Source of the DNA: a bacterium
Lineage (GTDB): Bacteria > Electryoneota > Electryoneia > Electryoneales > Electryoneaceae
DNA length: 64,000 bases
Direction: 5' to 3'
Assembly (NCBI GenBank): GCA_020444265.1
Contig: JAHLLH010000001.1
Span: 434,001-498,000 of the forward strand
Shown here: positions 8,621-27,000 of the stretch, one piece after another
Position numbering within the stretch: the first letter of the stretch is position 1
Layout: the number at the start of each line of letters is the position of its first letter
Notes under the pieces: model-generated
What the model saw: only the letters and a program-made list of their open reading frames with translations
The model's database searches: none
Told to the model about the DNA's origin: nothing
Position numbers and translations under genes: made by a program

Positions 8621-8860
8621 TCGCTTGTGCACCAATGATACACGGAACCGGGGAGGATTGTCAAGTGTTGGAATTCGGTTCGGCTCTGCTCGTAACTCCA
8701 TTACATGCAGCATTCACCTACTGTTGACGGGCATGATTACTCTCGCCGAATACGTTCATCTCTGAACCAGTAACCCGGCTCGCCCCTCCGTTGTCAGAAG
8801 AGGAGGGAGGATGTACTTTGTTTCTCTTCTCAGCCAGAAACTTTCCTTTTGGAGGCGTAC

Positions 8861-10813
8861 GTGGAATTGCTCTCTCGTGGACGCGGTGTCGTTGTTTGCA
8901 TGCTCTTTGGTTTGATGCTGTTCGGTCTGGTCCCGACAGCCGGTGCTGATGTTGTCGGTGATACGGTTGTGGTGGGGTATTCTGCCCTGGATAACCAGCA
9001 TAATACAGTGATTGGACGAATGATTGCCTATGATCCAAATGGGGATGGCGGCAATGGACTTGTCCATCTGGTTTATACCAAACTTTTGCTGGATCGCTCG
9101 GATCGGTACGTCGTCTCGAACAAGGTTCACTTTGTCGATGGCATGCCGGACATGTCCAACAGCGTTCCATCTACTATCAGTGGTGGGTACTCGGGAGGGT
9201 ATGCAACTCTCGGGATGTCACCGTCGATGGAGAATCCATGGCCCGTTTATGCGTTCCATGATCGCCCCGGTGCTGGACAGGTCTACTCGGCACATGTGGC
9301 TTCCGAATCGGAGGTTGTGCCTGGCTTTTTCATCGAGCAGATCCTGAATAATCCGCTTGGTGGAAGTGTAACACAGTTCAAGATTGCCATGGATGCGGAT
9401 AGCATCGCCCACATGGTCGGTGGGTCGTCAACAGGAACAACAGGCGATCCGCGTCCCCTGATCTACTATCGTCTTGCTGCAAACCGCCTCGACAATACCT
9501 TTGAGATCACCAATCCGGCCGGGTCTCAATCCATTGTTACAGAAATCGCACCCTTCAGTGCTGCAGAGATCGCGGTCAGCCCGGATGGTCAACGTGTCGC
9601 GATTTCTCATATACTGGCACGCGAAGCGCTGGGCCAGTCCACGGTCCCATCTGGATCAGACTATGTCCTTTGGGTCAGTGATGATGGTGGCCGAAACTGG
9701 AACTTTGACGAATCCCTGGTAAATGTGACCCAGTTCGCTGGCCCGTATGGTGACCTGCTTCCGGATACAACGGCTGCAGATGGTGACACCATGCGCGTAA
9801 CCTCTGGTAGCTCGCTCTTTATTGATGACGACAACACACTTCATTTCGCATATGAAGTGTATCCCTGGTTCCACTACGAGGAGACCGGCTACATCTTTGG
9901 TCGAGTCTATTACTGGAATGATGAACATCAGGAACACATCCAGGTTGCGGATGGCAGTTTCTTCCTGAATGCAGGTGTCACCTCCTATGGTTCGATGACC
10001 GGAAAGCCCAGCCTGTACAAGGATCCGGATACCGGTTACCTGTGGTGTCTATACCAGCAATTTGGCGAGCCGGGTGATACGTTGGAGACAGGTGATGCGA
10101 TGGATGCCGGTGAGTCCACGGGCCTCCTTAACGCCGACCTTTACATTGCAGCATCCCCGCCCGGCGAGTACAACGGCCTCCTTTGGTATAAGGGTGTGAA
10201 CATCACCAATACTAAAGGGACAACAGGTAGCCTGCCAGCAGGCGAAAGCCAGCATGAGCGGGATGCATCCCTGGCTCTGAACAATGATGGCGACTACTTA
10301 AACATCCTCTATCTGAAGGATCTTGATTCAGGTAACTTCGACAACGGGAACGGCACCATCACGGAAAACCCGCTCATTTATCACCGAGTCAGCAAGCAGG
10401 AGCTGATCGACATGTACAACGATCAGCAGGAGTTTGTCCGTAACTATCCGATCCACATTGATTCCACTGGATTCTGGCAGGATGAAGAGGATTGGGCGTG
10501 GCGTGAATTGACATCAGTGGATGAGCCGGTTCAAGCAGCTCAGCCTGGCGGATTTGAGATCGAGCATGCATGGCCGAACCCGTTTAATGCGACCCTGTCC
10601 GTCAGGTTCAGTCTGGATCGCACGAGCAAGGTGCGTCTAGCGGTTTTCGATGTTTTGGGGCGCGAAGTGGCAGAATTGTCCAACCATACGTATTCCGGTG
10701 GCCGCCACACCTTGTCTTTCGATGCGCAGTCGCTCGCAAGTGGAGTTTATTTCCTGAGACTCGAGAATGGGTTCGGGGAAAACTCGATGTTAAAGGTCGC
10801 TCTTGTGAAATAA
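8861..10813 (+). CDS. Secreted beta-propeller-like protein with T9SS-type C-terminal sorting domain
   Basis: The best start is the GTG at 8861, 5 bp after GGAGG; this gives 650 residues. A signal peptide (VVVCMLFGLMLFGLVPTAGA) is followed by a repetitive beta-rich body. That body has at least one Asp-box-like motif (WVSDDGGRNWNFD, near residue 275), as found in sialidase/BNR-type propellers. Other blade-like pieces are LIYYRLAANRLDNTF and SLFIDDDNTLHFAYEVY. The last 80 residues carry AWPNPFNATLSVRFSL, FDVLGREVAEL, SGVYFLRLENGF and LKVALVK, a type-A sorting domain. The likely fate is secretion and attachment at the cell surface. No catalytic residues can be assigned, so an enzymatic role is unproven. 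Confidence 0.85.
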   Translation: MELLSRGRGVVVCMLFGLMLFGLVPTAGADVVGDTVVVGYSALDNQHNTVIGRMIAYDPNGDGGNGLVHLVYTKLLLDRSDRYVVSNKVHFVDGMPDMSNSVPSTISGGYSGGYATLGMSPSMENPWPVYAFHDRPGAGQVYSAHVASESEVVPGFFIEQILNNPLGGSVTQFKIAMDADSIAHMVGGSSTGTTGDPRPLIYYRLAANRLDNTFEITNPAGSQSIVTEIAPFSAAEIAVSPDGQRVAISHILAREALGQSTVPSGSDYVLWVSDDGGRNWNFDESLVNVTQFAGPYGDLLPDTTAADGDTMRVTSGSSLFIDDDNTLHFAYEVYPWFHYEETGYIFGRVYYWNDEHQEHIQVADGSFFLNAGVTSYGSMTGKPSLYKDPDTGYLWCLYQQFGEPGDTLETGDAMDAGESTGLLNADLYIAASPPGEYNGLLWYKGVNITNTKGTTGSLPAGESQHERDASLALNNDGDYLNILYLKDLDSGNFDNGNGTITENPLIYHRVSKQELIDMYNDQQEFVRNYPIHIDSTGFWQDEEDWAWRELTSVDEPVQAAQPGGFEIEHAWPNPFNATLSVRFSLDRTSKVRLAVFDVLGREVAELSNHTYSGGRHTLSFDAQSLASGVYFLRLENGFGENSMLKVALVK

Positions 10814-11355: not shown

Positions 11356-14300
11356 ATGAAGAAAGTGTTCGCGTTTCTTCTTTGTTTCGTCCTTGCAAGC
11401 TCGTTCCTCGTACCGTCCCTAAGCTGGGCGGATGGGGTCGTCAAGGAGGAAGCACCTTCAACAACGCCCGTGGTTACCCTTATCCCACAAGTCGTTGTTA
11501 CAACCCCCGCACCTTTTGGCCCACAGCCTTTGACAGCTCTCGCCAAAGACCGAGCCACCGTGCTGGCGGATGCAACAAATTATCTCGCCACCAGCCAGGG
11601 GGCGAGCAGGGTAGAAGCCGTCAACAAAGATGCAGGACAGGTCAATTCCGTCCAGCGTCAGGGACGAAGCTTCGACAAAAGCTCGGAGTTAAGCAGACTC
11701 CAGAGCGCTCAGCAGCAAGGTCGCACCTTCGACAAGACTCCAGGATCGTATGGATTCTTTGTTGAACAGAGGATGGGACGCGCTGCAAAGGGTGACTCGC
11801 CGATGAGCGCCATCCAGCAGCCTGGTACGGCGAAGGCAAATAATACACATCGCACATCCCGTGTAGAAGCTGGTGAGGCGGTCGAAAAGGCAAGCAATAC
11901 TGCAAATATCTCGATCGGCCAACATCAGGGACAGGCGGCGGACAAGTCCTCGCCGATGAACAAGGTTGCCTTCGAGCAGAGGCAGGGACGTGAGGTCGAA
12001 AAAGCCAATGGTCCGCTGAGCTCAACCCGCAAGATGGGCGATGCAGTTGACAAGAGCAGCGACAGGCACGCACTTCAGACCCTGCAGCAGCCGGGTCGTG
12101 AAGCGAACAAGCCTGATGCCGCAGTTTCTGTCAGCCAGGACAAAGAAACGTCCTCTGAAAAGGTTTCCAACCCGGTAAACAGTAAGCAAGGTCAGGGCCG
12201 TGAGGCTGTCAAGGATACTGAAAACAACGAACTGGATGAGATCCCAGGCTTCTACAATGTCTACGCATCTCACCAGGTTTCGCCGGACTTTGATGGCTAC
12301 CTGGAAGCCTGGTATTTCGAAGTGGATGTTGATGTGCCCAATAGTGCTACTGAAAGCACGGACATTACCATCATTGACACCCAAGGCAACAACTACGGAA
12401 CATACGGCCCGTTTGAGTTTACTGGCTACCTTACGTCAGATAACGCATTTATAGGTCCTTTCACTGATCTATTTACGTTTTGGGAGCCGCTGCCCGCAGA
12501 CGTCGCTTTCGTGCTCACGCTGTCAAACGGTGGTGATACGTTTGAGATCACTGTTCCAGTTGATGACAACTATGAAGATGCGGATACTGTGCCGTACTTC
12601 TACAGTGTGACCGTTCAAAACGCAGTCGACGATGATGTCGATGGCTACAACGAAGCGTGGGATTTTGTTGTAGACATTGATGTTTATGATGGTTCCACCC
12701 AGACGACCAACATCCGCATCTCGGATAGCAACGGTACTGACTATGGTTGGTTTGGACCCTTTGATTTTTCGGGTTCGCTTACCAGCGATAACGTTTACAT
12801 CAGTTTTGATGCTGGCGATTTAGGAGAGGCGTTTACCGGACCGGACGACGTCTTTTTCTATTTCGAACTTGAGGCGGACGGGGATGGATATGTCCGTCAG
12901 GTGATGGTAGACGAAGCACCACTGGTGGATCCGCCTTACTTCTGGGATGTCTACACAGCCTTCCCGACCGATGCGGATGATGATTCCTGGTACGAATCCT
13001 GGTGGTTCGAAATTGATGTTGACGTACCCGGTCAAAACTACGCCACTACAGGGATTTACATTACTGACTCGAACGGAAACGATTACGGTGAATTCGGTCC
13101 CTTCGAGTTCTTCAATGGTGCGACGGATGACAATGTTTTCATCGGTCCGTTCAGTTCTGACCTGATCGGTGCAACAGGCCCGCCAGATGAAGTCGTGTTC
13201 AACTTTGAACTGACGAATGGTGGGGACACCAATACTGAAGTAGTTCCCGCCGATGCACAAGAAGATGATCACCAGGATATGGGCTTCTGGTCCGTGAGCG
13301 TAATCAACGGTGTGGATTCAGACGAGAACGGTTTCCTGGAATCCTGGGACTTCGAAATTGATGTCGATGTTTCGGATGGCGGAACAGCTGAGACGTTCAT
13401 CGAGGTCGTTGATGGTGTCGGCAACAACTATGGCATCTTTGGACCCTTCGCATTCACAGGTGCCTTGACATCTGATAATGCACTCATTACGGGGTTCACC
13501 TGGGAGATGCTTGGTGATGCTGAGCTGCCAGCAGAAGTCCAATTCTACTTCGGGCTTTCCAACGGTGGTGATCAGTACAGCTTGCCTGTCCCGGTAGATG
13601 GGGAAGGACAGCAGGATCTTCCGTATTTCTACAATGTTTACACCGCTGGACCGTCAGACGTGGATGATGATGGTTATCTCGAAGCCTGGTGGTTCGAGGT
13701 GGATGCTGACGTCGATAATGGCGCCTCAGCAGAAACCACGATTGAAGTCTATGGTCCGGATGGATCGCTTGTAGGGATCTACGGACCCGCAACTTTCACC
13801 GGTTATCTCACCTCAGATAATGCTTTCATCGGCCCGTTCGATGCTACCATGTTCCCCGGTGGTCCGGCAGATATGGAGTTCAGCTTTGTTCTGACGAACG
13901 GTGGTGACACCACCTTTGGTACCGTCCCTGTGGACGCAGAAGGTGATGCGCATGGACCGATGAGTATCTACGCAGTCTCTACGATCAACGGTGTGGATGC
14001 GGACGAAAACGGGTTCCTTGAATCTTGGGACTTTGAAATCGATGCAGATGTGAGTGATGGCGGCTCGGCCGAAACCTGGATTGCTATTTGGGATGATCTG
14101 GGGAACGATTACGGTACGTACGGTCCGTTCACATTCACTGGCTTTGCGACAGATGACAACGCTTTCATTTCCGGATTCACATGGGGTCTTGTGAACCCGG
14201 AAGGTCCGCCTATGGATGTCAACTTCACATTCATGTTGACAAACGGCGAAGCGTCACAGGACGAATTGGTCCCGGTGGATGGAGAGGGATCAGCAGATAT

Positions 14301-17300
14301 TCCGTTCTTCTGGAGTGTTTACACAACTGATGTCGTTGATGGTGATGATGACGGTTGGCTGGAATCCTGGTACTACACGATTGATGTGGATGTCCCCAAC
14401 GGCTCTTCCGCCGAAACGATGGTCTACATCTTTGACGATAACGGCGCAATTGACGAGGTCTACGGTCCGTTTACCTTTACCGGTTCCTTGACCGAAGACA
14501 ACGCCGTGATCGGTCCATTCAATTCGACCGAGTTCATTGAGTTCTACGATTTACCCAACGAAATTCCCATGAACTTTGAGCTCTCCAACGGTGGCGATCT
14601 GTTTACGCACTATACGCCTGCTGATGGAGAGGGTCCGATTCTACCCCAATTCTACAATGTCTATGACAGTGGGGTAGTCGATACGGACGAAGATACTTTC
14701 GCTGAATCCTGGTACTTTGAAATTGATGTGGATGTCCCGGGAAGCATGGCGGATACCGATATTCAGATCACCAACAACGTCGGCGATGATTATGGCTGGT
14801 TCGGGACGTTCACGTTCGAGGGCTACCTCACCAGCGATAACGTCTTTATCGGTCCCTTTACCTCCGACCTGGTCAGCATCGAAACGGCCCAGGAGGTCAT
14901 GTTCACCTTCACGCTTTCAAATGGTGGAGATGTGTACGACCTGACCATGGGTGTTGATGATCCAACGGCAGGGGAAACCCCGTTCTTCTGGAGTGTCAAC
15001 CGTCAGAATGAAGTGGATGAGGACGGTGACTTCTACCTTGAGGCATGGGACTTTGTGATCGATGTTGATGTTCCGAATATGGGGACCGCATCCACTCGTG
15101 TTCACATTTCGGATAACGTGGGCAACGACTACGGCTGGTTTGGCCCATTCACCTTCTACAACGGCGCGACCGATGATAATGTCTTCATCGGTACCTTTAC
15201 GTCTGACATTGTGATGGCGCCGGATGCCCCACAGGATGTTGAATTCACATTTGAACTCGACAATGGTGGGGATGTCACTACAAACCTGACTCCAGTTGAC
15301 GAGCCGAGCGTCCAGGAAGAGTTGCCGTTCTTCTGGGGTGTCTACATCGACAGCCCGGTTGATGAAGATGAAGATGGGTATTTCGAAGCGTTTAACCTCG
15401 AAATCGACGTTGACGTTCCGAACGGTGCGACCGCCGAGACTAACATCCTGATCGTAGATGCTTTCGGCAACGATTTCGGCGAGTATGGTCCCTTTACCTT
15501 CGTCAATGGCAACACCGACGACAACATCTTCATCGGTCCATTCACGCAAGAGATGTGGTCTGATCAAGACTTCCCGGGTTGGGTGGATTTCCAACTGACG
15601 CTCACCAATGGCGGTGACGTCGCCTTCCCGGAAGTGCCTGTTGACGGTGATGGCACAGGCGAAGAGTTCCCGTTCTTCTATGATATCTACACCGTCGACG
15701 TGATTGATGCAGATGAAGATGGCTGGTTTGAAGCCTGGTATTTTGAAGTCGACGTGGACGTCCCGATGGGCGGAACCGCTGAGACCGATATTCACATCTC
15801 AGACAGCGAAGGAAACGACTATGGTTGGTATGGTCCCTTCACCTTTGTGAATGGCAATACTGATGATAACGTTTTCTTCGGACTCTTCAGTGCAGAACTG
15901 GTAGCACCAGAAGTAGCACCTGGTGATGTTGAGTTCTACTTCGAGCTGTCGAATGGAGGGGATACAGAAACCGAACTGGTTCCTGTTGATGAACCAAACG
16001 AAGGTCCAACACCTGCCTTCTGGAACACCTATATCGTCGATGCTCAGGACTTCGATGAAGATGGTTACTACGAATCCTGGAACTTTGAAGTTGATGTCGA
16101 TGTTCCGGACGGTGGAACTGCTGAAACGCTTATCCGCATTGAGGATGGCTTCGGCGGTGATTACGGATGGTTTGGTCCCTTCACCTTTACAGGTACCTTA
16201 ACATCCGACAATGCTCTGATCGGCGAGTTCTTCTCCGCCTGGTATGCTGGATTCGAGGGAATTCCGGGCAATGTCAACTTCATGTTGACCCTGTCTAATG
16301 GCGGCGATCAGATGTCGATCGAAGTTCCTGTGGATGGCATTGATCCTACCGCACCATACTTCTATGACGTCTATTTGAACGATCCGTTCGATGGCGATCA
16401 AGATGGCTACTTCGAGCAATGGGGCTTCGAGATCGATGTTGATGTTCCCGAGGGTGCCACGGCTGAAGTTGAAATCCACATGACCGATAACTTTGGCCAT
16501 GATCATGGATGGTTCGGTCCCTTTACGTTCACAGGTTACTTGACTTCGGACAACGCCTTTATCGGACCGTTCTTCGCAGACCAGTTCAACGAGACAGGCG
16601 AACCAGTTGAAGTTGAAGTCGGCTTCCAGCTCGATCCGGGCGGCGACTACATCTCAGGCATGCTGCCTGTGGACAATGAAGGTGCCGGGTTGGATATGCA
16701 TGTCCCGATTGAGGGCAATGTGTTTGAGCTGGTTTCAATCGGTCTCGTTCCTGAGAGCCCGTGGGTCGGCGATGTCTTCAGCAGCCTGGAAGACCTGGCA
16801 GTTGTATACAACCATGATGGTAACCTCTACGTTCCTGGTGTGATCGATGATATTGGCAATGTCGATCCAGGTCATGCCTACCGTGTCCTCAGCGACTTTG
16901 ATGACATGTGGGATATGATGGGTGCACCAGCTGATCCTGCGACTCTTTACGAGATGGCACCAAACACATGGAACTGGCTCGGTTATCCCTTCGGCCACAT
17001 GGAATCGGTGGAAGGCATGATGTTCGGCATGGATGAACACCTTGTCATCATCATGAACGATGAGGGTCAATTCTACATTCCCAACGTGATTAACACTCTT
17101 GGCGTCATGCGTCCGGGTGATGGTTACATGGTCTTCGCCAGTGATTGGATTGATTTCTATTATCCGCAGGGTGGACCGGTTGTAGCGTCCAACACGATGG
17201 AACTTACACGTGTTGAGACCCCGACAGATGCCCCGGCGCGTACAGGCATGCCTTACGCCGTCCTGGTGAAGCTGGAAGACAGCCTTTGGCGGTCTGCTCC

Positions 17301-17829
17301 AGGCATGGTGGAGCTCTATTCTGGTTCCGTCCTCGCTGGTAAGGCATACATTGACCCGAACAGTGACATCACTCCTGTAGTGACCTGGCAGGGTTCGGAT
17401 GCAGAAGGTCTTGAAGGTTTCACACCGGGTGCACAGATTACTCCGGTCCTGATTTCTGAGGATGGCAGCAGAATTAATCTGCGTCAAACGAGTCAGGGTG
17501 CAACATTCGGTTCCGGTGGATATGCTGTCATGACTCTTGAAGAAGCAGCGATTCCGACAGAGTTCGGCATGAAAGCTGGTTATCCGAACCCCTTTAACCC
17601 CTCAATTAATATTCCCTTCGCCCTGCCGAACGCAGGTGATGTGAAGGTTGCTGTCTACAATGTTCTGGGTCGGGAGGTCTTCGCGAAATCGACCCACTTC
17701 GAGGCTGGATACCACAATATGGTCTTCTCTAGTCATGAAGCGGGTTTTGAGCTTGTCAGCGGTGTCTATTTCTTCCGCATGAGCTTCGCTGGTCACACCG
17801 TGACTCAGAAGATCGTTTTGATGAAGTAG
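11356..17829 (+). CDS. Giant secreted repeat protein: 13 tandem ~114-residue acidic domains plus T9SS-type sorting domain
   Basis: The start is the ATG at 11356 behind GAAGGGAGTG, giving 2157 residues. A signal peptide (VFAFLLCFVLASSFLVPSLS, ending near residue 24) leads into a low-complexity region. That region has about 11 copies of a 17-20-residue unit resembling QxxGRxxDKSSxxx (about 95-289). Thirteen tandem domains follow (about 298-1778), each reading roughly [PG]-F-[YW]-x-V-Y, then DxDxDGxxE[AS]W, FE[IV]DVDVP, GPFTFTG, LTSDNxFIGPF, LSNGGD and PVD. The DxDxDG loop looks like a calcium-binding loop. Then come a two-copy 'FELVS...YVPGVI' domain (about 1785-1940), a divergent 'GLPYA' module (about 1960-2060) and the sorting domain (GYPNPFNPSINIPFALP, VYNVLGREVF, GVYFFRM, KIVLMK). 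The body is very acidic and lacks cysteine. A surface fibre, adhesin or S-layer-like role is inferred. Confidence 0.88.
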   Translation: MKKVFAFLLCFVLASSFLVPSLSWADGVVKEEAPSTTPVVTLIPQVVVTTPAPFGPQPLTALAKDRATVLADATNYLATSQGASRVEAVNKDAGQVNSVQRQGRSFDKSSELSRLQSAQQQGRTFDKTPGSYGFFVEQRMGRAAKGDSPMSAIQQPGTAKANNTHRTSRVEAGEAVEKASNTANISIGQHQGQAADKSSPMNKVAFEQRQGREVEKANGPLSSTRKMGDAVDKSSDRHALQTLQQPGREANKPDAAVSVSQDKETSSEKVSNPVNSKQGQGREAVKDTENNELDEIPGFYNVYASHQVSPDFDGYLEAWYFEVDVDVPNSATESTDITIIDTQGNNYGTYGPFEFTGYLTSDNAFIGPFTDLFTFWEPLPADVAFVLTLSNGGDTFEITVPVDDNYEDADTVPYFYSVTVQNAVDDDVDGYNEAWDFVVDIDVYDGSTQTTNIRISDSNGTDYGWFGPFDFSGSLTSDNVYISFDAGDLGEAFTGPDDVFFYFELEADGDGYVRQVMVDEAPLVDPPYFWDVYTAFPTDADDDSWYESWWFEIDVDVPGQNYATTGIYITDSNGNDYGEFGPFEFFNGATDDNVFIGPFSSDLIGATGPPDEVVFNFELTNGGDTNTEVVPADAQEDDHQDMGFWSVSVINGVDSDENGFLESWDFEIDVDVSDGGTAETFIEVVDGVGNNYGIFGPFAFTGALTSDNALITGFTWEMLGDAELPAEVQFYFGLSNGGDQYSLPVPVDGEGQQDLPYFYNVYTAGPSDVDDDGYLEAWWFEVDADVDNGASAETTIEVYGPDGSLVGIYGPATFTGYLTSDNAFIGPFDATMFPGGPADMEFSFVLTNGGDTTFGTVPVDAEGDAHGPMSIYAVSTINGVDADENGFLESWDFEIDADVSDGGSAETWIAIWDDLGNDYGTYGPFTFTGFATDDNAFISGFTWGLVNPEGPPMDVNFTFMLTNGEASQDELVPVDGEGSADIPFFWSVYTTDVVDGDDDGWLESWYYTIDVDVPNGSSAETMVYIFDDNGAIDEVYGPFTFTGSLTEDNAVIGPFNSTEFIEFYDLPNEIPMNFELSNGGDLFTHYTPADGEGPILPQFYNVYDSGVVDTDEDTFAESWYFEIDVDVPGSMADTDIQITNNVGDDYGWFGTFTFEGYLTSDNVFIGPFTSDLVSIETAQEVMFTFTLSNGGDVYDLTMGVDDPTAGETPFFWSVNRQNEVDEDGDFYLEAWDFVIDVDVPNMGTASTRVHISDNVGNDYGWFGPFTFYNGATDDNVFIGTFTSDIVMAPDAPQDVEFTFELDNGGDVTTNLTPVDEPSVQEELPFFWGVYIDSPVDEDEDGYFEAFNLEIDVDVPNGATAETNILIVDAFGNDFGEYGPFTFVNGNTDDNIFIGPFTQEMWSDQDFPGWVDFQLTLTNGGDVAFPEVPVDGDGTGEEFPFFYDIYTVDVIDADEDGWFEAWYFEVDVDVPMGGTAETDIHISDSEGNDYGWYGPFTFVNGNTDDNVFFGLFSAELVAPEVAPGDVEFYFELSNGGDTETELVPVDEPNEGPTPAFWNTYIVDAQDFDEDGYYESWNFEVDVDVPDGGTAETLIRIEDGFGGDYGWFGPFTFTGTLTSDNALIGEFFSAWYAGFEGIPGNVNFMLTLSNGGDQMSIEVPVDGIDPTAPYFYDVYLNDPFDGDQDGYFEQWGFEIDVDVPEGATAEVEIHMTDNFGHDHGWFGPFTFTGYLTSDNAFIGPFFADQFNETGEPVEVEVGFQLDPGGDYISGMLPVDNEGAGLDMHVPIEGNVFELVSIGLVPESPWVGDVFSSLEDLAVVYNHDGNLYVPGVIDDIGNVDPGHAYRVLSDFDDMWDMMGAPADPATLYEMAPNTWNWLGYPFGHMESVEGMMFGMDEHLVIIMNDEGQFYIPNVINTLGVMRPGDGYMVFASDWIDFYYPQGGPVVASNTMELTRVETPTDAPARTGMPYAVLVKLEDSLWRSAPGMVELYSGSVLAGKAYIDPNSDITPVVTWQGSDAEGLEGFTPGAQITPVLISEDGSRINLRQTSQGATFGSGGYAVMTLEEAAIPTEFGMKAGYPNPFNPSINIPFALPNAGDVKVAVYNVLGREVFAKSTHFEAGYHNMVFSSHEAGFELVSGVYFFRMSFAGHTVTQKIVLMK
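11640..12222 (+). repeat. About 11 short tandem protein repeats (17-20 residues) in the giant protein
   Basis: Successive units read QRQGRSFDKSS, QQQGRTFDKTP, EQRMGRAAKGDS, QQPGTAKANN, VEAGEAVEKAS, QHQGQAADKSS, QRQGREVEKAN, RKMGDAVDKSS, QQPGREANKPD, QDKETSSEKVS and QGQGREAVKD. The shared core is a polar turn around G-R followed by a basic D/E-K-S. The segment is rich in Q, K, S and R, unlike the acidic body that follows. It may be disordered or a short coiled segment. Confidence 0.8.
12247..16690 (+). repeat. Thirteen tandem ~114-residue domains in the giant protein
   Basis: Each unit runs about 340 nt. Unit starts can be followed by the aromatic opening: GFYNVY, PYFYSV, PYFWDV, GFWSVS, PYFYNV, SIYAVS, PFFWSV, QFYNVY, PFFWSV, PFFWGV, PFFYDI, PAFWNT, PYFYDV. 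Landmarks kept in nearly all units are DGxxE-A/S-W, DVDV, GPFTF, DN-x-FIG and NGGD. Units 3, 9, 10 and 11 share the variant NGxTDDN in place of TGxLTSDN. This suggests they descend from a sub-duplication. Confidence 0.93.
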
Positions 17830-17841
17830 GTCGCGATGGAT

Positions 17842-17870
17842 GCTTCCCCCGGTTTACGACCGGGGGAAGC
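17842..17870. terminator. Strong hairpin between the giant gene and the four-module gene
   Basis: GCTTCCCCCGGT and ACCGGGGGAAGC pair perfectly over 12 bp around a 5-nt loop. No T-run follows directly (GTTGTGACG), so it may attenuate or protect transcript ends rather than stop transcription. The next gene starts 35 bp later. Confidence 0.6.
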
Positions 17871-17904
17871 GTTGTGACGTTTTCCGGAAAAGAAAGGATG
17901 CATC

Positions 17905-19983
17905 ATGAAAATGAGAGCCTACTTGCTTGGCATCCTCCTATGCGTCGCATGGACGGCAGTCAGCTATGCTCAACCGCATTTCACCGCGGTCGATGAAACA
18001 GGGCTGCCGTACGGCATCGTGTTGGATACAGCGACATTGGACGGGGATGACCTTGTCGAAGGAGACGAGGTAGCAGTCTTCACCGGCGACTTGTGCGTTG
18101 GTGTGGCGACTGTTGATGGCGAATGGCCCCTCGCCCTGACCGCATGGGAAGGTGATCCTTCTCAAGGACTGGAAGGATTTGCAGCGGGTGATCCAATCAC
18201 ATTCCGAGTGTGGGCAGGATCACCGCGCGCTGAATGGCCCGCCACGGGAGTTTTTACCCTTGGTGATGGCACATTTGGATATGGTGCGTACAGCCGCGCG
18301 GATGTTTCAGCGTCAACCATTGGCGTGGAATACTTCGAGCCTGTTGAATCCACAGGTTTGCCGTATGCACTTGTCATTGATAACGCAACCATTGATGAAG
18401 AATCGCTGGTTGTAGGTGACGAAGTGGGTGTGTTTGATGGTTTTCTCTGCGTCGGTGCCTCTGTCTACACCGGTTCATGGCCGATGGCCCTGACCGCATG
18501 GGAAGGAGACCCCTCGCAGGAATTGCCCGGCTTCACATCCGGCAACGACATGATCTTCCGTGTCTATTCAAGTGACATGGAAGAGGAATTTGGATCGATA
18601 CCCGAATACTCGGAGGGGGATGGTACGTTCGGTTATGGCGCCTATTCACAGCTTACTCTGGCAGCCGGAACCTTCGTTCCAAACTTCTTTGATCCGGTCG
18701 AGCCTACTGGTTTGCCCTACGATTTCTCCATCACTGAGGCATCATTATTGGGAATAGACGTTGTCCCGGGAGATGAAATCGGTGTGTTCGATGGGCTTCT
18801 GTGTGTTGGTGCGATCGTCGTCACCGGCGACTGGCCATTAACGTTAACTGCCTGGCAAACCAATGTTGCGGAGGAGATGCCCGGGTTTACTCCTGGTAAT
18901 CCTGCATTCTTTGTAATGTACCAGGCAGATACCGATGAAGGATTTATCGGCTTGCCGGATTACGAAACAGGGGATGGGACGTTCGGATTTGGCGATGGCA
19001 GTACTCTTGGCTTAGATGGTGTCCCGTTCACTGCTGATCATTTTGATCCGGTTGATCCTACCATGCAGGACCCACACCTGATTTTCGTCAATGCAGCGAT
19101 GTTTGAGGGTACTCCGCTTGTTGCAGGAGACGAGGTGGCGGTGTTCGATGGTGATCTTTGTGTTGGTGCGATGGTGATGACGGGGGATTTCCCGATTCCC
19201 ATGCTTGCGTGGCAAGCAGATCCGAATGAAGGACAACCCGGTTTTGACCCAACTCACGACATGACCTTCAAGATGTGGTCCTCGGGTGACGATCTCGAAT
19301 CGCCAGCTATCACCGCCTATATACAGGGTGATGGTACGTTCGGGTTCCTGCCCTACAGTGTTGTCACCCTTGGTACACCAACAGCACCGACGGCGTTCTC
19401 GCTTGCAGCACCTGCTGATGAATCAGCGTTTCTGAGGAATGTCCAGGTGGACTTTGAGTGGCATCACAGCAGTGATGCCGATCCAGGGGATTCGTATACG
19501 TACAACTTCTACCTGACGACTGATCCGGAAGGTTTCGGCAATCCGTTCGAGGAAGAGTTGACGGACACGACATTCAGCTGGACAACCCTCGCGGTTGATA
19601 CGACCTACTACTGGACTGTGTCAGCAGTTGACAGCTACGGGCTTGAGACCTGGGCAAACGAGGTCTGGACGTTCACGGTAAGTGAAACATCCGTTGGCGA
19701 CAACCCGGTTGGATTGCCCGCTGAATGGGCGATTCATAAGGTTTATCCGAACCCGTTCAATGCAGCCACGACCATCGAGATTGCCATCCCGAACGAGAGT
19801 CATCTGACTCTTGAGGTCTTTGACATTCTCGGCCGTCGTGTAGCCTTGCTCGAATCTGGTCCTGTGTCAGCAGGGGTGGCACGGTACAGCTGGGGCGGGC
19901 ATGCAGCATCTGGTGTCTATTTCATCCGAGCCATCAACCAGGACGGGTGGAAAGCTTCGCAGCGAATTGTGAGCCTGAAGTAG
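17905..19983 (+). CDS. Secreted protein with four 'GDEIGVFDG' modules, an Fn3-like domain and T9SS-type sorting domain
   Basis: The 692-residue product starts at an ATG 6 bp after AAAGGA. A signal peptide (YLLGILLCVAWTAVSYAQ) is followed by four tandem ~117-residue modules starting near residues 24, 140, 258 and 376. Each module runs FxPVxxTGLPYxIVI, then GDEVAVFDGxLCVGA, LTAWxxDP, GFTPGNxxxF and GDGTFGxGxYS. Each copy keeps a single cysteine (DLCVGV, FLCVGA, LLCVGA, DLCVGA). A fibronectin-III-like domain (about 492-600: FSLAAPADESAFL, DTTYYWTVSAVDSYG) precedes the sorting domain (VYPNPFNAATTIEIAIP, FDILGRRVALL, SGVYFIRAI, RIVSLK). I know no named function for the module. The same module recurs in the next gene, so the two products likely belong to one surface structure. 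Confidence 0.87.
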   Translation: MKMRAYLLGILLCVAWTAVSYAQPHFTAVDETGLPYGIVLDTATLDGDDLVEGDEVAVFTGDLCVGVATVDGEWPLALTAWEGDPSQGLEGFAAGDPITFRVWAGSPRAEWPATGVFTLGDGTFGYGAYSRADVSASTIGVEYFEPVESTGLPYALVIDNATIDEESLVVGDEVGVFDGFLCVGASVYTGSWPMALTAWEGDPSQELPGFTSGNDMIFRVYSSDMEEEFGSIPEYSEGDGTFGYGAYSQLTLAAGTFVPNFFDPVEPTGLPYDFSITEASLLGIDVVPGDEIGVFDGLLCVGAIVVTGDWPLTLTAWQTNVAEEMPGFTPGNPAFFVMYQADTDEGFIGLPDYETGDGTFGFGDGSTLGLDGVPFTADHFDPVDPTMQDPHLIFVNAAMFEGTPLVAGDEVAVFDGDLCVGAMVMTGDFPIPMLAWQADPNEGQPGFDPTHDMTFKMWSSGDDLESPAITAYIQGDGTFGFLPYSVVTLGTPTAPTAFSLAAPADESAFLRNVQVDFEWHHSSDADPGDSYTYNFYLTTDPEGFGNPFEEELTDTTFSWTTLAVDTTYYWTVSAVDSYGLETWANEVWTFTVSETSVGDNPVGLPAEWAIHKVYPNPFNAATTIEIAIPNESHLTLEVFDILGRRVALLESGPVSAGVARYSWGGHAASGVYFIRAINQDGWKASQRIVSLK
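17968..19374 (+). repeat. Four tandem ~117-residue 'GDEIGVFDG...LCVGA' modules
   Basis: Copies begin near nt 17970, 18325, 18679 and 19033. Three related full copies lie at about 21742-22800 in the protease gene. Two divergent copies that have lost the cysteine lie at about 17236-17560 and 23355-23670. Confidence 0.9.
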
Positions 19984-20066
19984 ATTCGCCAGGGGATCCA
20001 ATTCGTACGCAACGATAACAATAACCAGTAACTCTACACGCTGGTTCTGATAGAGTGGGAGGCACT

Positions 20067-23000
20067 ATGCGAAGGTGGTTTCTGATCCCTCTCGCGTTGC
20101 TTATCGCAAGCTTTGCACTGGCGGTGAATCCGCCGCCGGTGCTGGTTGTCAAGCTTTCGGATGAAGCATCGCGAACGGCGAGGGATCAACAGGCAATACC
20201 ATCTGTTCTGGCATCTGTTGACCAGGAAAGCGGGCTGGCACCTGTGTTCCAGCCTCCTGGTGACCCGGAACAGCTGGCAGCCTGGCGAGAATTTGGTCTA
20301 CACCGATGGTTTACGGTTCAGTCTGCCGGTGTGGGGCCAACAGACATTGCCACTCAACTGAGCAAGAATGCTGAGGTTCTTGATTTCCAACTCCTTGAAG
20401 CGGCAAGCGCTCACTACATCCCCGATGACATGAACAATTTCAACATGTGGGGATTAACAAGAATGCAGCTCCCGATGGCCTGGGATCTGCAGACAGGTAC
20501 CGACGGCATTCTTGTCAGTACGATTGATACGGGCTGTAATCTTGGTCATGAAGACCTCTCAGCGAACATCTTTGTCAATTGGGGCGAAGATGTCAATGAG
20601 GACGGGGTCATTGATCAAGCCGACGAGAATGGTGTCGATGACGACGGCAATGGATACGCCGACGACTTTTACGGCTACGATTTCGTTTCCCACACGTACG
20701 AACCGTACGGTATGATCGAAGGGGAAGATTACGCACCTCGCGACAACCATGTCTTCCCGGACGTCCACGGCCACGGTACCCATGTTGCGGGTAGCATGGC
20801 TGCAAGTACAGACAATAACGTCGGTGTTGCTGCTGCATCCTTCAACGTTACCCAAATGCCCCTTCGCGCTGGTTTTGCTATCGAAGACGGCGGTGATATC
20901 TACGGCATTGGGTATGATGACGACTTCGCACCAGCAGTGGCCTATGCCGCTGAAATGGGTGCAAGAGTCATCTCAATTTCGTTTGGCGGAACAGGCTTTT
21001 GGCAGGGTTATCAGGATGCCATCAACTACGCCCGCTCTTTAGGATGCGTCATTTTTGCTTCGGCGGGCAACGATAACTACAGCGTTTTAACCTATCCGGC
21101 AGCGTATGAAAACGTTGTCGCCGTTGCTGCGTCAGATGTCAACGATGAACGTGCATGGTTTTCGAATTTCGGAAACTGGATAGATATCACGGCACCAGGT
21201 GTGGATATCTGGAGCACGATGTCGAATAACGTGTGGCATCCAGTGGATTATATCTCCTGGAACGGCACGTCGATGGCTTCGCCTAACGCTGCTTCAGTGG
21301 CAGCGTTGATCCTGAGTGCGAATCCTGGTTTGTCACCTTCTGAGGTTGAAACCATTCTGTTTGAATCCGCTGATAATATCGATGCGGACAATCCGGGCTA
21401 TGAAGGTCAGCTCGGTTGGGGTGTGGTAAACGCCTACAATGCGCTCATGTCGATGAGCGGTCCTCTCGAAGTACCTCAGAATCTCTGGGGTGATCTTGAT
21501 GGCGGCACAGGTGAGGTATCGCTTGGTTGGGATCCGGTTTCCGGTGATGTACTCGATGATTTTATGGGGTATGTCGTCTACCGGAATGGTGAATATGTTG
21601 GTGAAGTCCCACATGTCGGTTTCTCGGATTATCTGCCTGGATTCGGATTCTACGAGTACCAGGTGTCCGCTGTCTATGCGGAAGGCGAGAGCAATTGGTC
21701 CGATCCGTTGGTCGTTGAATGGTATGGGCACTCCGGTGATCCTGTCCACTTCATGCCAGTTGAACGCACCGGGTTACCTTATGCCATCGTGGTGGATTAC
21801 GCTGGCTTCGGTGAGGGCATGTTGATGCCCGGTGATGAGATTGGTGTCTTCGATGGCGATCTCTGTGTCGGTGCGATAAGTGTTTTCGGTGAGCCTCCCT
21901 ACGCCATCACGGCATGGCAGAGTGAGCCGGACCAGGGGATGCTTGGCTTTATTCCCGGCAACCCGATGCGATTTGAATACTTCCGCGCAATGGAAGGTCA
22001 GTTCATTCCTGCGAGCGCGAACTATACAACCGGAAACGGTTCCTTTGGTGATGGTCCCTATACGGTTGTCGAACTTCAGGATTTCGATCCGCAACCAGAA
22101 CATTTCTACCCGGTTGAGCGGACCGGACTGCCCTATGCCATTGTTGTAGACTTTGCTGGCTTTGGCGAAGGCACGCTGATGCCGGGCGATGAAATCGGCG
22201 TCTTTGACGGTGACCTTTGTGTTGGTGCGGTCAGCATCCATGGTGACGCACCTTACCCGATCACGGTTTGGCAGGGAGATGTTGAGCAGGAGTTGCCAGG
22301 ATTTACACCGGGCAACCCGATTCACTTCGAATACTTCCGTGCCATGGAAATGGACTACTATCCTGCACAGGCAACGTATACAGTCGGTGATGGCACCTTT
22401 GGCGCCGGACCTTACAGTATTGTTGAATTGGAGGATTTCGAGGTAGTTCCTGTCCATTTCTCGCCCGTGGATCGCACAGGGTTACCCTATGCTATTGTGA
22501 TCGACGAGGCTATCATGTTGGAAGAAGTTATGCTTCCGGGTGATGAAATCGCGGTCTTTGATGGCGGTCTTTGTGTCGGTGCGGCTGTTGTCCGTGATGG
22601 TTGGCCACTTGCTTTGACCGCATGGCAAAGTGATGCTGACCATGGACTTCCGGGATTTGTGCCGGGGGACGGAATGCAGTTCCATGTCTGGAGCGCATCT
22701 GAGGATCTTGAAATGCCTGCTGCCGCTGAGTATTCAGTGGGAGATGGGTTGTTCGGGTCAGGTCCTTATTCGCAAGTCGTACTGAATGCTGACCTCGCCG
22801 AACCCCAGGAAACGGTCGTCGCTGCCAATCGTTTTGAACTTGTCTCGATGTTTGTTGTCCCTCAGGACATGAGTGTTGAAGAACTGTTTGGTAGCCTGGA
22901 TGATCTGGTTGTTGTCTACCAGGACAACGGGAACTTCTATGTTCCGAACCTGATCAACACCATTGGCGCTGCAACTCCAACGGAAGGGTATCGTGTCTTT

Positions 23001-23936
23001 GTCTCGACAGCGGATACCTGGACGTTTGAAGGCGCACCGATGGATCCCGGCAGCGTCTACCCACTTGCTGCAGGTCGCTGGAACTGGATGGGATTCCCTT
23101 ACGCTGAGACCTTCGGTGTTCAAGCAGCCATGGGGGATATTGAAGAGGACCTTGTCATCGTTCAGAACGATGATGGACTTTTCTACATCCCAGGCGTCAT
23201 CAATACTCTGGGCGATCTGGTCCCAGGTGATGGCTACATGATCTTTGTCGATGAAGCGATGGACTTTATCTATCCGTCAATTCAGCAAGACATTCAAGGG
23301 CGCACAACAACCCCGTTGGTATCCCTGGCACCAGTGGATCCATCACTCGCTACCGGGCTGCCATGGAATGTGCTTGTCCATCTCGATGATCGTGCGCAGT
23401 CTCTTGCGACAACTGTCCAGTTGCTCGATGGCCAAAGAGTCGTCGGACAAGGCGTCGTACAGCATGACCTGACCTTCACACCAGTCACCGCGTGGGAAGG
23501 GGCTCCGGATGTTGGATTGTCCGGTTTCACGAGTGGTCATGCGGTTGATCTACGTTTACTTGATGCGAGTGGACAGCAGCTTCCTGTCGAATTGGTCGGT
23601 AAGGATGTGAAGTTTGGTGAAGGGGCTTACGGAGTCATGTCCGTCGCATCAACTGAGCTGCCACAATCCTTCATGGTAGGGAAGGGTTATCCCAACCCGT
23701 TCAACCCATCGATGACTGTCCCCATCCGCCTCCCTGAGGCGGGTTCAGTCGAGCTGCAGGTCGTCAACGTTCTCGGCAGGACACTCTTCAAGGAGACAGT
23801 CCACATGAAAGCTGGTGAACACAGATACCAGTTCTCGGCGAAGAGTGTTGGACAGGATATGGTCAGTGGAGTCTATTTCTTACAGGTACGCTTCCAGGGG
23901 CAGCAACAGGTGCAGAAGATCGTCCTGATGAAATAG
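20067..23936 (+). CDS. Secreted subtilisin-like serine protease (S8) with modular tail and T9SS-type sorting domain
   Basis: I chose the ATG at 20067 (GGGAGG site) over the in-frame GTG at 20055; the product is about 1289 residues. A signal peptide (about 1-20) and a propeptide-like stretch precede the S8 domain. The catalytic triad is complete: D154 (STIDTGCNLGHEDL), H236 (GHGTHVAGSMA) and S402 (NGTSMASPNAAS), with oxyanion N335 (ASAGND). An Fn3-like domain (about 470-555) follows. Next come three GDEIGVFDG modules (about 558-910), the two-copy FELVS/YVPxxI domain (about 920-1080), a divergent GLPW module (about 1096-1195) and the sorting domain (GYPNPFNPSMTVPIRLP ... KIVLMK). The tail from FELVS onward matches the tail of the giant protein. 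It probably cleaves proteins at the surface; maturation of its neighbours is a possible, unproven role. Confidence 0.93.
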   Translation: MRRWFLIPLALLIASFALAVNPPPVLVVKLSDEASRTARDQQAIPSVLASVDQESGLAPVFQPPGDPEQLAAWREFGLHRWFTVQSAGVGPTDIATQLSKNAEVLDFQLLEAASAHYIPDDMNNFNMWGLTRMQLPMAWDLQTGTDGILVSTIDTGCNLGHEDLSANIFVNWGEDVNEDGVIDQADENGVDDDGNGYADDFYGYDFVSHTYEPYGMIEGEDYAPRDNHVFPDVHGHGTHVAGSMAASTDNNVGVAAASFNVTQMPLRAGFAIEDGGDIYGIGYDDDFAPAVAYAAEMGARVISISFGGTGFWQGYQDAINYARSLGCVIFASAGNDNYSVLTYPAAYENVVAVAASDVNDERAWFSNFGNWIDITAPGVDIWSTMSNNVWHPVDYISWNGTSMASPNAASVAALILSANPGLSPSEVETILFESADNIDADNPGYEGQLGWGVVNAYNALMSMSGPLEVPQNLWGDLDGGTGEVSLGWDPVSGDVLDDFMGYVVYRNGEYVGEVPHVGFSDYLPGFGFYEYQVSAVYAEGESNWSDPLVVEWYGHSGDPVHFMPVERTGLPYAIVVDYAGFGEGMLMPGDEIGVFDGDLCVGAISVFGEPPYAITAWQSEPDQGMLGFIPGNPMRFEYFRAMEGQFIPASANYTTGNGSFGDGPYTVVELQDFDPQPEHFYPVERTGLPYAIVVDFAGFGEGTLMPGDEIGVFDGDLCVGAVSIHGDAPYPITVWQGDVEQELPGFTPGNPIHFEYFRAMEMDYYPAQATYTVGDGTFGAGPYSIVELEDFEVVPVHFSPVDRTGLPYAIVIDEAIMLEEVMLPGDEIAVFDGGLCVGAAVVRDGWPLALTAWQSDADHGLPGFVPGDGMQFHVWSASEDLEMPAAAEYSVGDGLFGSGPYSQVVLNADLAEPQETVVAANRFELVSMFVVPQDMSVEELFGSLDDLVVVYQDNGNFYVPNLINTIGAATPTEGYRVFVSTADTWTFEGAPMDPGSVYPLAAGRWNWMGFPYAETFGVQAAMGDIEEDLVIVQNDDGLFYIPGVINTLGDLVPGDGYMIFVDEAMDFIYPSIQQDIQGRTTTPLVSLAPVDPSLATGLPWNVLVHLDDRAQSLATTVQLLDGQRVVGQGVVQHDLTFTPVTAWEGAPDVGLSGFTSGHAVDLRLLDASGQQLPVELVGKDVKFGEGAYGVMSVASTELPQSFMVGKGYPNPFNPSMTVPIRLPEAGSVELQVVNVLGRTLFKETVHMKAGEHRYQFSAKSVGQDMVSGVYFLQVRFQGQQQVQKIVLMK

Positions 23937-24004: not shown

Positions 24005-27000
24005 CTATTTCCAGGGTGCAGCACGTGTGGGATGTGGTTCTGGATTCGGGGTTGGTGGAGTGTATCCTTCCAGCTCTTCCAAGATCACTTCGATTGCTTT
24101 GTCGAGCTGAGGGTCACCGCCCTCGATCATTTCTTTTGGTGTCTGGTAAACTTCGATGTCCGGTGCGATGCCCTGATCCTCGACAATCCACTCACCATCC
24201 AGACTGAAGATGCCAAAACGAGGTGCAGTGACAGCGCCACCATCCACCAAACTTGGAGAACCACCGATTCCAACCAGACCGCCCCAGGTGCGACGTCCCA
24301 CCAGCTTTCCAAGGCCACGTTGGCGGAAAGCCATTGGCAACCAATCGCCGCCAGAACCGGCATTCTGATTGATGATCATCACCTTAGGGCCAGGCATCGA
24401 GGCATAGGGCGAAGCGGTATACACGCTGTCCCGGAACGCCCAGTAATTGATCAACGGCCTGCTCATCATGTCGATCATGTAGTCTGCGACCGATCCACCA
24501 CCGTTGTACCTCTCGTCAATAATGGCTGCATCTTTATCAAGCTGAGAGAAGAAGTAACGATTGAAATAGGTGTAGCCTGCACCGCCTGTGTTCGGCAGGT
24601 AGATATACGCAACTTTTCCATCTGTTGCTTCATCCACCTTCTTACGGTTGGCTTCCACCCAGTTCAAAAGGCGAAGACTGCGTTCGCTGGAGACCGGGAG
24701 AACAGTTGCCTCACGGGCGTTCTTACGGGTGGGCTTGTCATTAACAAGCAAAACCGTCTGCTGACCAGCGGTGTTCTCGAAATAGCGGAAAATGCTGGTT
24801 TCTGTAGAGATATCGGTGCCGTTCACGGCGAGCAGATAGTCGCCCTGGTGAACGTCAATTCCCGGCTCTGTCAAAGGTGCACGAAGATCCGGGTTCCAGT
24901 TCAAACCTGAATAAATCTTGCTGATACGGTAATGATCGTTCTCGATCTCGTAATCCGCACCGAGCAATCCGGTTTTCACCGAGGGGACATCAGGAGTATC
25001 GCCACCAAAGACATAAGCATGACCCACCACCAGTTCGCCGATCATATCGGAGAAGAGGTTGTTCAGGTCATCTCTCGAACCTACATGGTCGAGGAAGGGG
25101 CGGTACTTTTCTCTGATTCCCGGCCAGTCCGCGCCATGCATGTTTGGATCGTAGAAGAAGTCACGTTCAACGCGCCATGCTTCATCGTACATCTGCGCCC
25201 ACTCTTTGCGTGGGTTGAGGTACATCTCCATACCACCAACGTCGAGCTTCCCATCACCTTTGCTCGGTGATCCTTTGACCTCGACGATCCCGTAGCTGCG
25301 ACCATCGATGTAAATCAACTTTTCGCCATTGGCGCTGATTTCGAAACCGCCAATACCCGTGAGGAAGTCTTTTCCTTCTTCCTCACCCATATCGAAGCGA
25401 CGTAACGTATTGCCTGAGCCCTCTGCTTCTTTCATAAAGAAGAGGTAGCCGCCTTCAGCAGCCTGGAGGTCCCAGTAATTGGCTTCTGGTTCATCTAACG
25501 CTAGGATCCGCTGGGAAAGCCCCACGTAGTCGATAACGACGGCATCCTCATCTTCGGCTATCTCTTCGCTCTCATCTTCATCATCGCTTTCGTCCGCTGA
25601 TTTCACATCTTCTTCATCGCTCTTCGGCGCGAAGGGGGAGGGCGATTCGCTGTCCAGTACGATGCAATAGATGCTTCGTTCGACATCTCGATCGTAGGAG
25701 GACATGTCCAACCCACTGATGTTCAAGGCGTAGTTGGTGCTGGCAGCAAAAAAGAGATAGTTACCATCACGGCTAAAGGTGGGGGAGATAGCATCGCTCA
25801 TCCCATCAGTAACCTGTCGGCTGGTACCATTTTCGGTATCGTAAACAAAGATCGCACGGTAGTGATTAGGGAGCGTCTTGGCGTAGGCGATGTAACGGCT
25901 GTCCGGGGACCAATCCGCAGAAGCATTGAGAGAGCTTTCCGTATCCCGGTCGATCAGGACGGGCTTGCCCTTCTCTACATCAATGTAGAACAGGGAAACG
26001 CTGTCGTCGTTGAAGAGGATTTTGGTACCGTCTGGGGACCAGGTCGGATAGTAATAGAAGGCATTATCCGGCAGATCAATCTTTACAGGTTCAGTTTCGC
26101 CTTTCTGGTCAATCAGGTAGAGGTCGTATTCACCTGCCATATCAGACAGCCATGCAATCTTATCGCCGTTGGGCGACCAGGCGGGGTAACGATCGTGAGC
26201 ACCGCTGGACCTGGTCAAATTTCGGATTTCGCCATTCTCAGCGGGTACGGTGAAGATGTCGCCTCGCGCTTCGAAGAGGCCACGCACCCCGCTCGGTGAT
26301 AGACTAACGGTTCGAATCTGTTTGTGCACTTTCTTCCAGTGAGGTCTTGTGTAGGGCAGATCCGGGTTAATGCTCACCGTAATGGTCGAGAGTGCTTCTG
26401 TTTCAGGCGAATAAACATGAATCATGCCCGCCTGCTCAAAGGCGAGACGTTTGCCATCCGTGGTAAGGTTTTTGACGTCAAAATCTTCAAAAGTCGTCAC
26501 CTGTGTCACCACCTGCGATGCAACATCATACTCAAAAACATTCATCGTGAAGTTGCGGTCTGACAGGAAATAGACTTTGTCGCCTATGTAGCAGGGGTAG
26601 GTGTCGTTGGAATTGTCGCGAGGGATCTCGACATAGTCCATCGAGGCAAAATCATAGACCCAGATCATCGTCGTCCGACCACCACGGTACCGTTTCCAGG
26701 TATTGGTCGCATCTGCAACGGGCATGTAAGCGATCTTGCTCATGTCGGGAGAAAAAGAGCCACGTTCCGCTTTCGGTAAAATAACCGCTTCAGGAAAGCC
26801 ACCCTTCGGCGAGACGGTATAGAGACGTCCGTATCGACGGGTCTCGTTGGTGCGATAACTACGGAACAGGATGTCCCCTTCGGGTGTCCAGCCACGGATG
26901 ACATCGGGCTCGGGATGATAGGTTACCCGGCTCGGTGATCCACCCTTTGTCGACACAACATAAATGTCGGTGTTTCCATCATATTCACCGGTGAATGCGA

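What the first reader, a model, noticed from the sequence alone, without database searches (positions are those of the whole stretch)
11356..23936. Cluster of three secreted genes sharing unnamed modules: giant repeat fibre, module protein and module-bearing protease
Three consecutive genes encode exported proteins with the same type-A sorting domain and a common stock of modules. The giant protein and the protease share one C-terminal block (two-copy FELVS/YVPxxI domain, divergent GLPx module, sorting domain). The middle protein and the protease share GDEIGVFDG modules. This looks like one multi-protein surface system built by module shuffling, with a protease that could process or remodel it. 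I know of no description of such a set.
Basis: partly seen in the sequence, partly recalled or inferred. Interest (0 to 1): 0.8.

Follow-up and report, generated by a model that had tools for sequence, protein, structure and literature searches.

The report
Modular surface-protein cluster, recurrent but variable
Three neighbouring genes make exported surface proteins (a giant acidic fibre, a linker-like protein and a subtilisin protease) that share two unnamed building blocks. The exact trio was found only here, but the same blocks sit side by side as neighbouring genes in many distantly related bacteria, so they look like a real and undescribed kind of surface gene cluster.

Summary
Three co-directional genes (11356-17829, 17905-19983, 20067-23936) encode type IX secretion (T9SS) cargo. 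They share a C-terminal cassette (FELVS double domain, GLPx, sorting domain; giant and protease, 41% identical) and ~118-aa GDEIGVFDG ("GLPY") modules (four in the middle protein, three in the protease). GLPx is a divergent GLPY.

The exact trio was not found elsewhere: the giant's 13-repeat array is absent from 38 phylum relatives. The cassette is a general C-terminal tail on unrelated N-termini (C25, S8, CBM20, beta-helix/LamG, GDSL, LRR), with over 90 copies in some genomes.

However, among 61 named loci picked only by a GLPY motif, a cassette gene is followed immediately, on the same strand, by a GLPY-only gene in 24 cases (23 genomes). The reverse order occurs once. In six genomes the only cassette copy found lies there. 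So the window is a variant of a recurrent, undescribed gene cluster.

The giant's array is extreme: 1480 aa, no lysine, five arginines, net charge about -300, Ig-like folds with DxDxDG loops. The likeliest reading is a calcium-dependent surface fibre. That the products bind each other, or that the protease trims them, is untested inference.

The parts
11356..17829 (+). Giant fibre-like T9SS cargo, 2157 aa
   Evidence: Open frame; signal peptide MKKVFAFLLCFVLASSFLVPSLSWA; sorting domain TIGR04183 37.3 bits
11431..12246 (+). N-terminal low-complexity region of the giant, about nine short Q-x-GR-type motifs at ~18-aa spacing, near-neutral charge
   Evidence: Sequence and motif scan; function unknown
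12247..16686 (+). 13 tandem ~114-aa repeats, Ig/FnIII-like, 0 Lys and 5 Arg in 1480 aa, D-x-D-x-[DN]-G-type loop in most
   Evidence: HMM 139-164 bits each; alignment A1; two-repeat model pLDDT 86 with Ig/FnIII-type PDB matches; composition
16714..17214 (+). FELVS double domain of the giant
   Evidence: HMM 294 bits; alignments A3, A4
17218..17553 (+). GLPx module of the giant (divergent GLPY)
   Evidence: GLPY HMM E=2.4e-8, own HMM 178 bits
17581..17826 (+). T9SS type A sorting domain of the giant
   Evidence: TIGR04183/PF18962
17839..17873 (+). Perfect hairpin between giant and middle gene, no T-run directly after it
   Evidence: -29.7 kcal/mol, z -4.4, no shuffle folds as well
17905..19983 (+). 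Middle module protein, 692 aa T9SS cargo
17977..19392 (+). Four tandem 118-aa GLPY modules of the middle protein
   Evidence: HMM 155-175 bits each; alignment A2
19741..19980 (+). T9SS type A sorting domain of the middle protein
   Evidence: TIGR04183 39.1 bits
20067..23936 (+). Module-bearing subtilisin-like protease, 1289 aa T9SS cargo
20502..21422 (+). Peptidase S8 catalytic domain; expected triad Asp154, His236, Ser402 present (IDTG, GHGTHVAG, GTSMASP)
   Evidence: PF00082 E=1.3e-45; motif positions
21747..22808 (+). Three tandem 118-aa GLPY modules of the protease
   Evidence: HMM 166-173 bits each
22824..23324 (+). FELVS double domain of the protease
   Evidence: HMM 288 bits
23343..23654 (+). 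GLPx module of the protease
   Evidence: GLPY HMM E=1e-11
23688..23933 (+). T9SS type A sorting domain of the protease
   Evidence: TIGR04183 35.7 bits
23959..23988 (.). Strong terminator-like hairpin closing the cluster, between convergent genes
   Evidence: -27.6 kcal/mol, z -6.7, followed by TTTT

Best explanation
The three genes are a local variant of a recurrent gene cluster of T9SS-exported surface proteins. Its core is a front gene ending in a ~375-495-aa cassette (usually GLPY, then the FELVS double domain, then GLPx, then the T9SS tail), followed on the same strand by one or more genes whose shared module is GLPY only. Proposed working: (1) each protein crosses the outer membrane by T9SS and the sorting tail is removed as the protein is attached to surface polysaccharide (established for T9SS elsewhere; here shown only as tail plus SprA). 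(2) The FELVS-GLPx block is then the membrane-proximal stalk or docking part, common to front proteins whose N-terminal business ends differ (inferred from position and conservation). (3) In this window the giant's business end is a long Ig-like fibre, nearly free of lysine and arginine, probably stiffened by calcium (inferred from fold and DxDxDG loops). (4) The GLPY protein is a partner or spacer deposited alongside (inferred from conserved adjacency). (5) The subtilisin is a second surface-held front protein that may digest outside substrates or trim the assembly (speculative). Separate likelihoods: recurrent co-inherited gene set about 0.85; products displayed together on the surface about 0.6; direct module-to-module binding about 0.25.
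For: All three carry T9SS tails, as do all 63 cassettes tested; the translocon gene SprA is in the genome. Fixed order: cassette gene then GLPY-only gene 24 times in 23 genomes, reverse once, with 19 of the 24 gaps under 110 bp, across records titled Bacteroidales, Prolixibacteraceae, Ignavibacteriae, Neomarinimicrobiota, KSB1, Cloacimonadota, Delongbacteria and Lentisphaerae. Six genomes with a single FELVS match have it in that place. This genome's three FELVS copies all sit in such clusters. The cassette has a near-constant length of 490-516 aa in most GLPY-containing copies and folds as one confident chain (pLDDT 94.7, pTM 0.79). The cassette's GLPx modules group mostly by position rather than by genome, so the arrangement is old. 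The two window cassettes are only 41% identical, so they are not recent copies. The fibre has 0 Lys and 5 Arg in 1480 aa and an Ig/FnIII-like model with matches that include the adhesin SiiE, RbmA and Bap.
Against: Cassettes occur without a GLPY partner (G014, G035) and as mass-produced tails (about 90 or more copies in G003, G033, G068), so a partner is not obligatory. No expression, binding or localisation data exist. The hairpin between the giant and the middle gene could uncouple their expression. GLPY modules of front gene and partner group together within some loci (WY4, ownC11), so part of the pattern may be local duplication. All sequences are MAGs or unnamed assemblies.
Confidence: 0.55

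Rival explanations
1. Generic tail: FELVS-GLPx plus the sorting domain is a general C-terminal stalk or sorting accessory of T9SS cargo. The three proteins act independently (adhesin, binding protein, protease) and sit together through duplication and co-regulation, not because they form a structure.
For: The cassette is found on C25 peptidases, CBM20, beta-helix/LamG, LRR/Ig, GDSL and S8 proteins; up to about 95 copies in one genome; cassettes without a partner (G014, G035); the giant's array unique in the phylum.
Against: It does not explain the one-way order of 24 to 1 across phyla, nor why single-copy cassettes sit next to GLPY-only genes in six genomes.
Confidence: 0.35
2. Nutrient-capture set: the modules bind environmental polymers and the cluster is a degradative locus in which the protease (elsewhere C25, CBM20 or GDSL proteins) digests material held by the other proteins.
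For: Catalytic triad motifs intact in the S8 domain; hydrolases and carbohydrate-binding domains among front genes.
Against: Front genes in many loci have no enzyme domain in Pfam (beta-helix/LamG, LRR/Ig); no transporter or hydrolase genes recur beside the clusters; the middle protein has no known binding domain.
Confidence: 0.25
3. The clustering is mostly recent tandem duplication and gene conversion of repetitive cargo genes and carries no functional meaning.
For: GLPY modules of one locus group together in WY4, KSB1 and ownC11; neighbouring modules of one protein are near copies.
Against: The order is conserved across phyla; GLPx and, in the Bacteroidota/Lentisphaerae group, the first GLPY of front genes are orthologous by position; the window's two cassettes share only 41% identity.
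Confidence: 0.15

Closest known systems
T9SS type A cargo (TIGR04183 / PF18962), e.g. gingipains and other modular surface proteins of Bacteroidota
   Same: Signal peptide, modular extracellular domains, C-terminal sorting domain; sorting-domain model matches the PorU tail 6za2 at Z 11.3; SprA present
   Different: Two extra unnamed domains precede the tail as a fixed cassette, with GLPY-only partner genes adjacent. Prevotella cargo described in PMC11969387 is not described with this arrangement in the passages read
Choice-of-anchor H domain (NCBIfam NF038116, Sden1266_dom)
   Same: The repeats of the giant add up to 68.8 bits over the whole protein against a cut-off of 53
   Different: No single repeat exceeds 22.5 bits; 13 tandem copies; T9SS tail as anchor
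Long Ig-like, calcium-dependent bacterial adhesins (SiiE, Bap, RbmA-type folds)
   Same: Tandem Ig/FnIII-like domains, acidic, putative calcium loops
   Different: No sequence relation in the PDB; different secretion route (T9SS, not type I)
Gingipain-type C25 protease plus adhesin proteins
   Same: In same-family genomes the cassette is the tail of C25 peptidases
   Different: The window's protease is S8; seven C25 matches in this genome but no FELVS cassette in any of them
Cohesin-dockerin (cellulosome) systems
   Same: Would work alike if shared modules dock to each other
   Different: No cohesin or dockerin domain found in the trio; docking untested

Membership tests
T9SS type A cargo | C-terminal type A sorting domain above the curated cut-off | tested here: met
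   37.3, 39.1 and 35.7 bits against 23; 63 of 63 cassettes match
T9SS type A cargo | N-terminal signal peptide | tested here: met
   Seen in sequence; no dedicated predictor was run
T9SS type A cargo | Host genome has the T9SS translocon | tested here: met
   TIGR04189 SprA 537 bits, over cut-off
Peptidase S8 (subtilase) | S8 domain with Asp/His/Ser motifs | tested here: met
   PF00082 E=1.3e-45; IDTG, GHGTHVAG, GTSMASP
Choice-of-anchor H (NF038116) | Domain match over the curated cut-off | tested here: inconclusive
   Whole protein 68.8 against 53 bits by summing repeats, best single repeat 22.5
Gingipain-type protein | C25 catalytic domain | tested here: not met
   No PF01364 in the trio; C25 plus cassette exists only in relatives
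Cohesin-dockerin system | Cohesin or dockerin domains | tested here: not met
   No such Pfam match at E up to 10
Recurrent cassette/GLPY gene cluster (defined here) | Cassette gene followed on the same strand by a GLPY-only gene | tested here: met
   Giant then middle gene, 75 bp apart; own C11 pair likewise
Recurrent cassette/GLPY gene cluster (defined here) | Products interact at the surface | not testable with these tools
   Needs experiment

The most novel reading that the evidence does not exclude
GLPY and FELVS-GLPx form a module-matched docking system on T9SS surfaces: partner GLPY proteins, deposited alongside, bind the membrane-proximal cassette of front proteins whose business ends are interchangeable. 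That would be a cohesin-dockerin-like way to build surface assemblies, used by Bacteroidota and many candidate phyla and mass-amplified in some lineages.
Probability: 0.2. Interest if true: 0.8.

Novelty: new variant of a known kind. Interest (0 to 1): 0.57.

Why it matters
Two unnamed extracellular domain families recur in many phyla and reach about a hundred copies in single genomes, yet no Pfam or NCBIfam family covers them. Their fixed gene order, with interchangeable N-termini, points to a common way of displaying proteins on T9SS surfaces in bacteria known mainly from metagenomes. If cassette and GLPY partner bind, it would be a surface-assembly system that can be tested with purified modules. 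If not, naming the families would still sharpen the annotation of many proteins now described only by their T9SS sorting domain.

Tried and rejected
Exact trio as a conserved unit: rejected, since the repeat array was found only in this genome among 39 of the phylum at E 1e-8. Recent duplication as the sole cause: rejected because the window cassettes share 41% identity and GLPx groups mostly by position. Halophile-wide acidity as the cause of the giant's composition: rejected because most other proteins in the window have ordinary K+R, about 6-14%. Pfam names for GLPY and FELVS: none (single weak WG-repeat hit, E=0.018, in one of 11 members). Literature: motif strings found nothing; searches on T9SS in candidate phyla found no description. 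The organism's own name was not established; contig coordinates match a same-family genome (G002) to a record titled Calditrichaeota bacterium SuakinDeep_MAG45_3.
Full report
OBSERVATION. Three consecutive plus-strand genes encode exported proteins with T9SS type A tails: a giant of 2157 aa (11356-17829), a middle protein of 692 aa (17905-19983) and a subtilisin-like protease of 1289 aa (20067-23936). The giant holds 13 repeats of ~114 aa. The giant and the protease end in the same FELVS-FELVS-GLPx-sorting block, about 42% identical. The middle protein has four and the protease three GLPY (GDEIGVFDG) modules of 118 aa. An HMM of GLPY finds GLPx in both long proteins, so GLPx is a divergent GLPY.

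REST OF THE GENOME. The window lies in a 4.33-Mb assembly (G000) with more than 150 T9SS-tail matches. Only three FELVS copies occur: giant, protease and a 1498-aa CBM20 protein on contig C11, whose downstream neighbour is a 1234-aa protein of three GLPY modules plus ASH/choice-of-anchor D domains. A lone 235-aa GLPY protein lies on C19. Five of the six module-bearing proteins thus form two clusters; the chance of that many adjacent pairs among six random genes of ~3600 is about 2.5e-6. The translocon gene SprA is present.

RELATIVES. The giant's repeat array was found in no other genome of the phylum (39 held, E 1e-8). The family NF038116 is a possible distant relative: 68.8 bits summed over the protein, but 22.5 for the best single repeat. 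The C-terminal cassette is in all six same-family genomes and in two of family f4, attached to C25 gingipain-like peptidases, CarboxypepD_reg repeats, beta-helix and other proteins. GLPY occurs in 27 of 39 phylum genomes, with at least 116 matches in one; FELVS in 20 of 39, with about 95 in two.

GENE ORDER. A scan of 85,000 species genomes with the motif VFDGxLCVG gave 61 loci from 41 genomes: Bacteroidota, Neomarinimicrobiota, KSB1, LCP-89, Zixibacteria, Cloacimonadota, Delongbacteria, Calditrichaeota, Lentisphaerae. 36 of the 41 genomes also have FELVS. In these loci, chosen without regard to neighbours, a cassette gene is directly followed on the same strand by a GLPY-only gene in 24 cases from 23 genomes; the reverse order occurs once, and 19 of the 24 gaps are under 110 bp. 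In several (L070, L076, L080, L082, L087, L100) the order is front gene, small ~240-265-aa GLPY protein, then a GLPY-only gene that is large wherever complete. Genomes with a single FELVS match often have it exactly there: G065, G072, G073, G074, G077 and G078, that is six of nine. Two of the other three (G066, G070) end at or near a contig edge and one (G081) has no neighbour. The N-termini of front genes vary freely: beta-helix + LamG, GDSL + GEVED, S8 + WD40-like, LRR + Ig, CBM20. In the window the order is cassette gene (giant), GLPY-only gene (middle), cassette gene (protease), so it is a variant of this pattern.

HISTORY. In a tree of 99 GLPY/GLPx modules, GLPx groups mostly by position (8 changes against 21.7 in shuffles), and the first GLPY of front genes in Bacteroidota and Lentisphaerae loci forms a supported clade (99/94), so there the arrangement is old. 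In WY4 and ownC11 the modules of front and partner genes group within the locus, so copying between neighbours also happens. The tree has few columns and many open forks. The two window cassettes are 41% identical, no closer than to some cassettes of other phyla.

STRUCTURE. The cassette of the protease folds as one confident chain (493 aa, pLDDT 94.7, pTM 0.79). PDB comparison recognises its sorting domain (PorU tail Z 11.3, rmsd 2.3 over 90); GLPY and FELVS remain untested as single domains. Sequence search of the PDB finds only the sorting domain. A two-repeat model of the giant (pLDDT 86) is an Ig/FnIII-like tandem with generic matches, among them SiiE, RbmA and Bap. The 1480-aa array has no lysine, five arginines and net charge about -300, while other proteins of the window are ordinary. 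Most repeats carry D-x-D-x-[DN]-G-[YWF]-x-E, a calcium-loop-like motif. GLPY has one nearly invariant cysteine (96% of 117 modules, though the loci were picked by a motif that contains it), which is lost in GLPx.

EXPRESSION SIGNALS. A perfect hairpin (-29.7 kcal/mol) lies between giant and middle gene without an immediate T-run, and a strong terminator-like hairpin follows the protease. Co-transcription is plausible but not shown.

INTERPRETATION. Shown: T9SS cargo, shared modules, recurrent one-way gene order, mass use of the cassette as a tail, extreme composition of the fibre. Established elsewhere: T9SS cargo is cleaved upstream of the sorting domain by PorU and attached to surface polysaccharide (abstract and passages of PMC11969387), which would leave FELVS-GLPx membrane-proximal. 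Inferred: calcium-stiffened fibre, partner role of GLPY proteins. Speculative: docking between modules, trimming by the protease. The strongest contrary fact is that cassettes exist without partners and in about a hundred copies per genome, so a generic tail remains a serious rival.

VERDICT. A new variant of a known kind (T9SS modular surface proteins) with two unnamed domain families and an undescribed recurrent gene order.

Noticed in passing
window 11431-12246: N-terminal ~270 aa of the giant carries about nine short Q-x-GR-type motifs at ~18-aa spacing, near-neutral, unlike the acidic array behind it; no known family.
   Followed up: partly
window 12247-16686: 1480-residue array with 0 Lys and 5 Arg; it should resist trypsin-like proteases and bind divalent cations.
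   Followed up: partly
window 17839-17873: Perfect hairpin (-29.7 kcal/mol) between giant and middle gene without a direct T-run; might set different expression levels.
   Followed up: partly
window 8849-10813: Another T9SS cargo protein (654 aa) just upstream of the trio without any of the shared modules.
   Followed up: no
window 24005-27244 (-): Tricorn-like protease gene (PD40, PDZ, S41) facing the cluster across a terminator-like hairpin.
   Followed up: no
G003 (records JAIOHU01, MAG_12): A same-family genome with at least 116 GLPY matches and about 95 FELVS cassettes: extreme amplification of one tail type.
   Followed up: partly
G017, G023, G026, G033 (family f2): GLPY modules in open frames of 5,000 to 10,800 aa, among the longest bacterial surface proteins.
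   Followed up: no
G005:C41 and G006:C16 (L166-L168): Shared synteny: a C25 protease with the cassette, then the same four genes, then a small GLPY protein.
   Followed up: partly
L081, L093: Front gene plus giant GLPY gene in two Lentisphaerae bins (10.6 and 14.1 Mb) with a single FELVS each: transfer between phyla or mis-binning.
   Followed up: no
L070:3114-9509: N-terminus of a front protein matches the myxobacterial gliding protein AgmC domain (NF047640, E=3.5e-23, below its cut-off).
   Followed up: no
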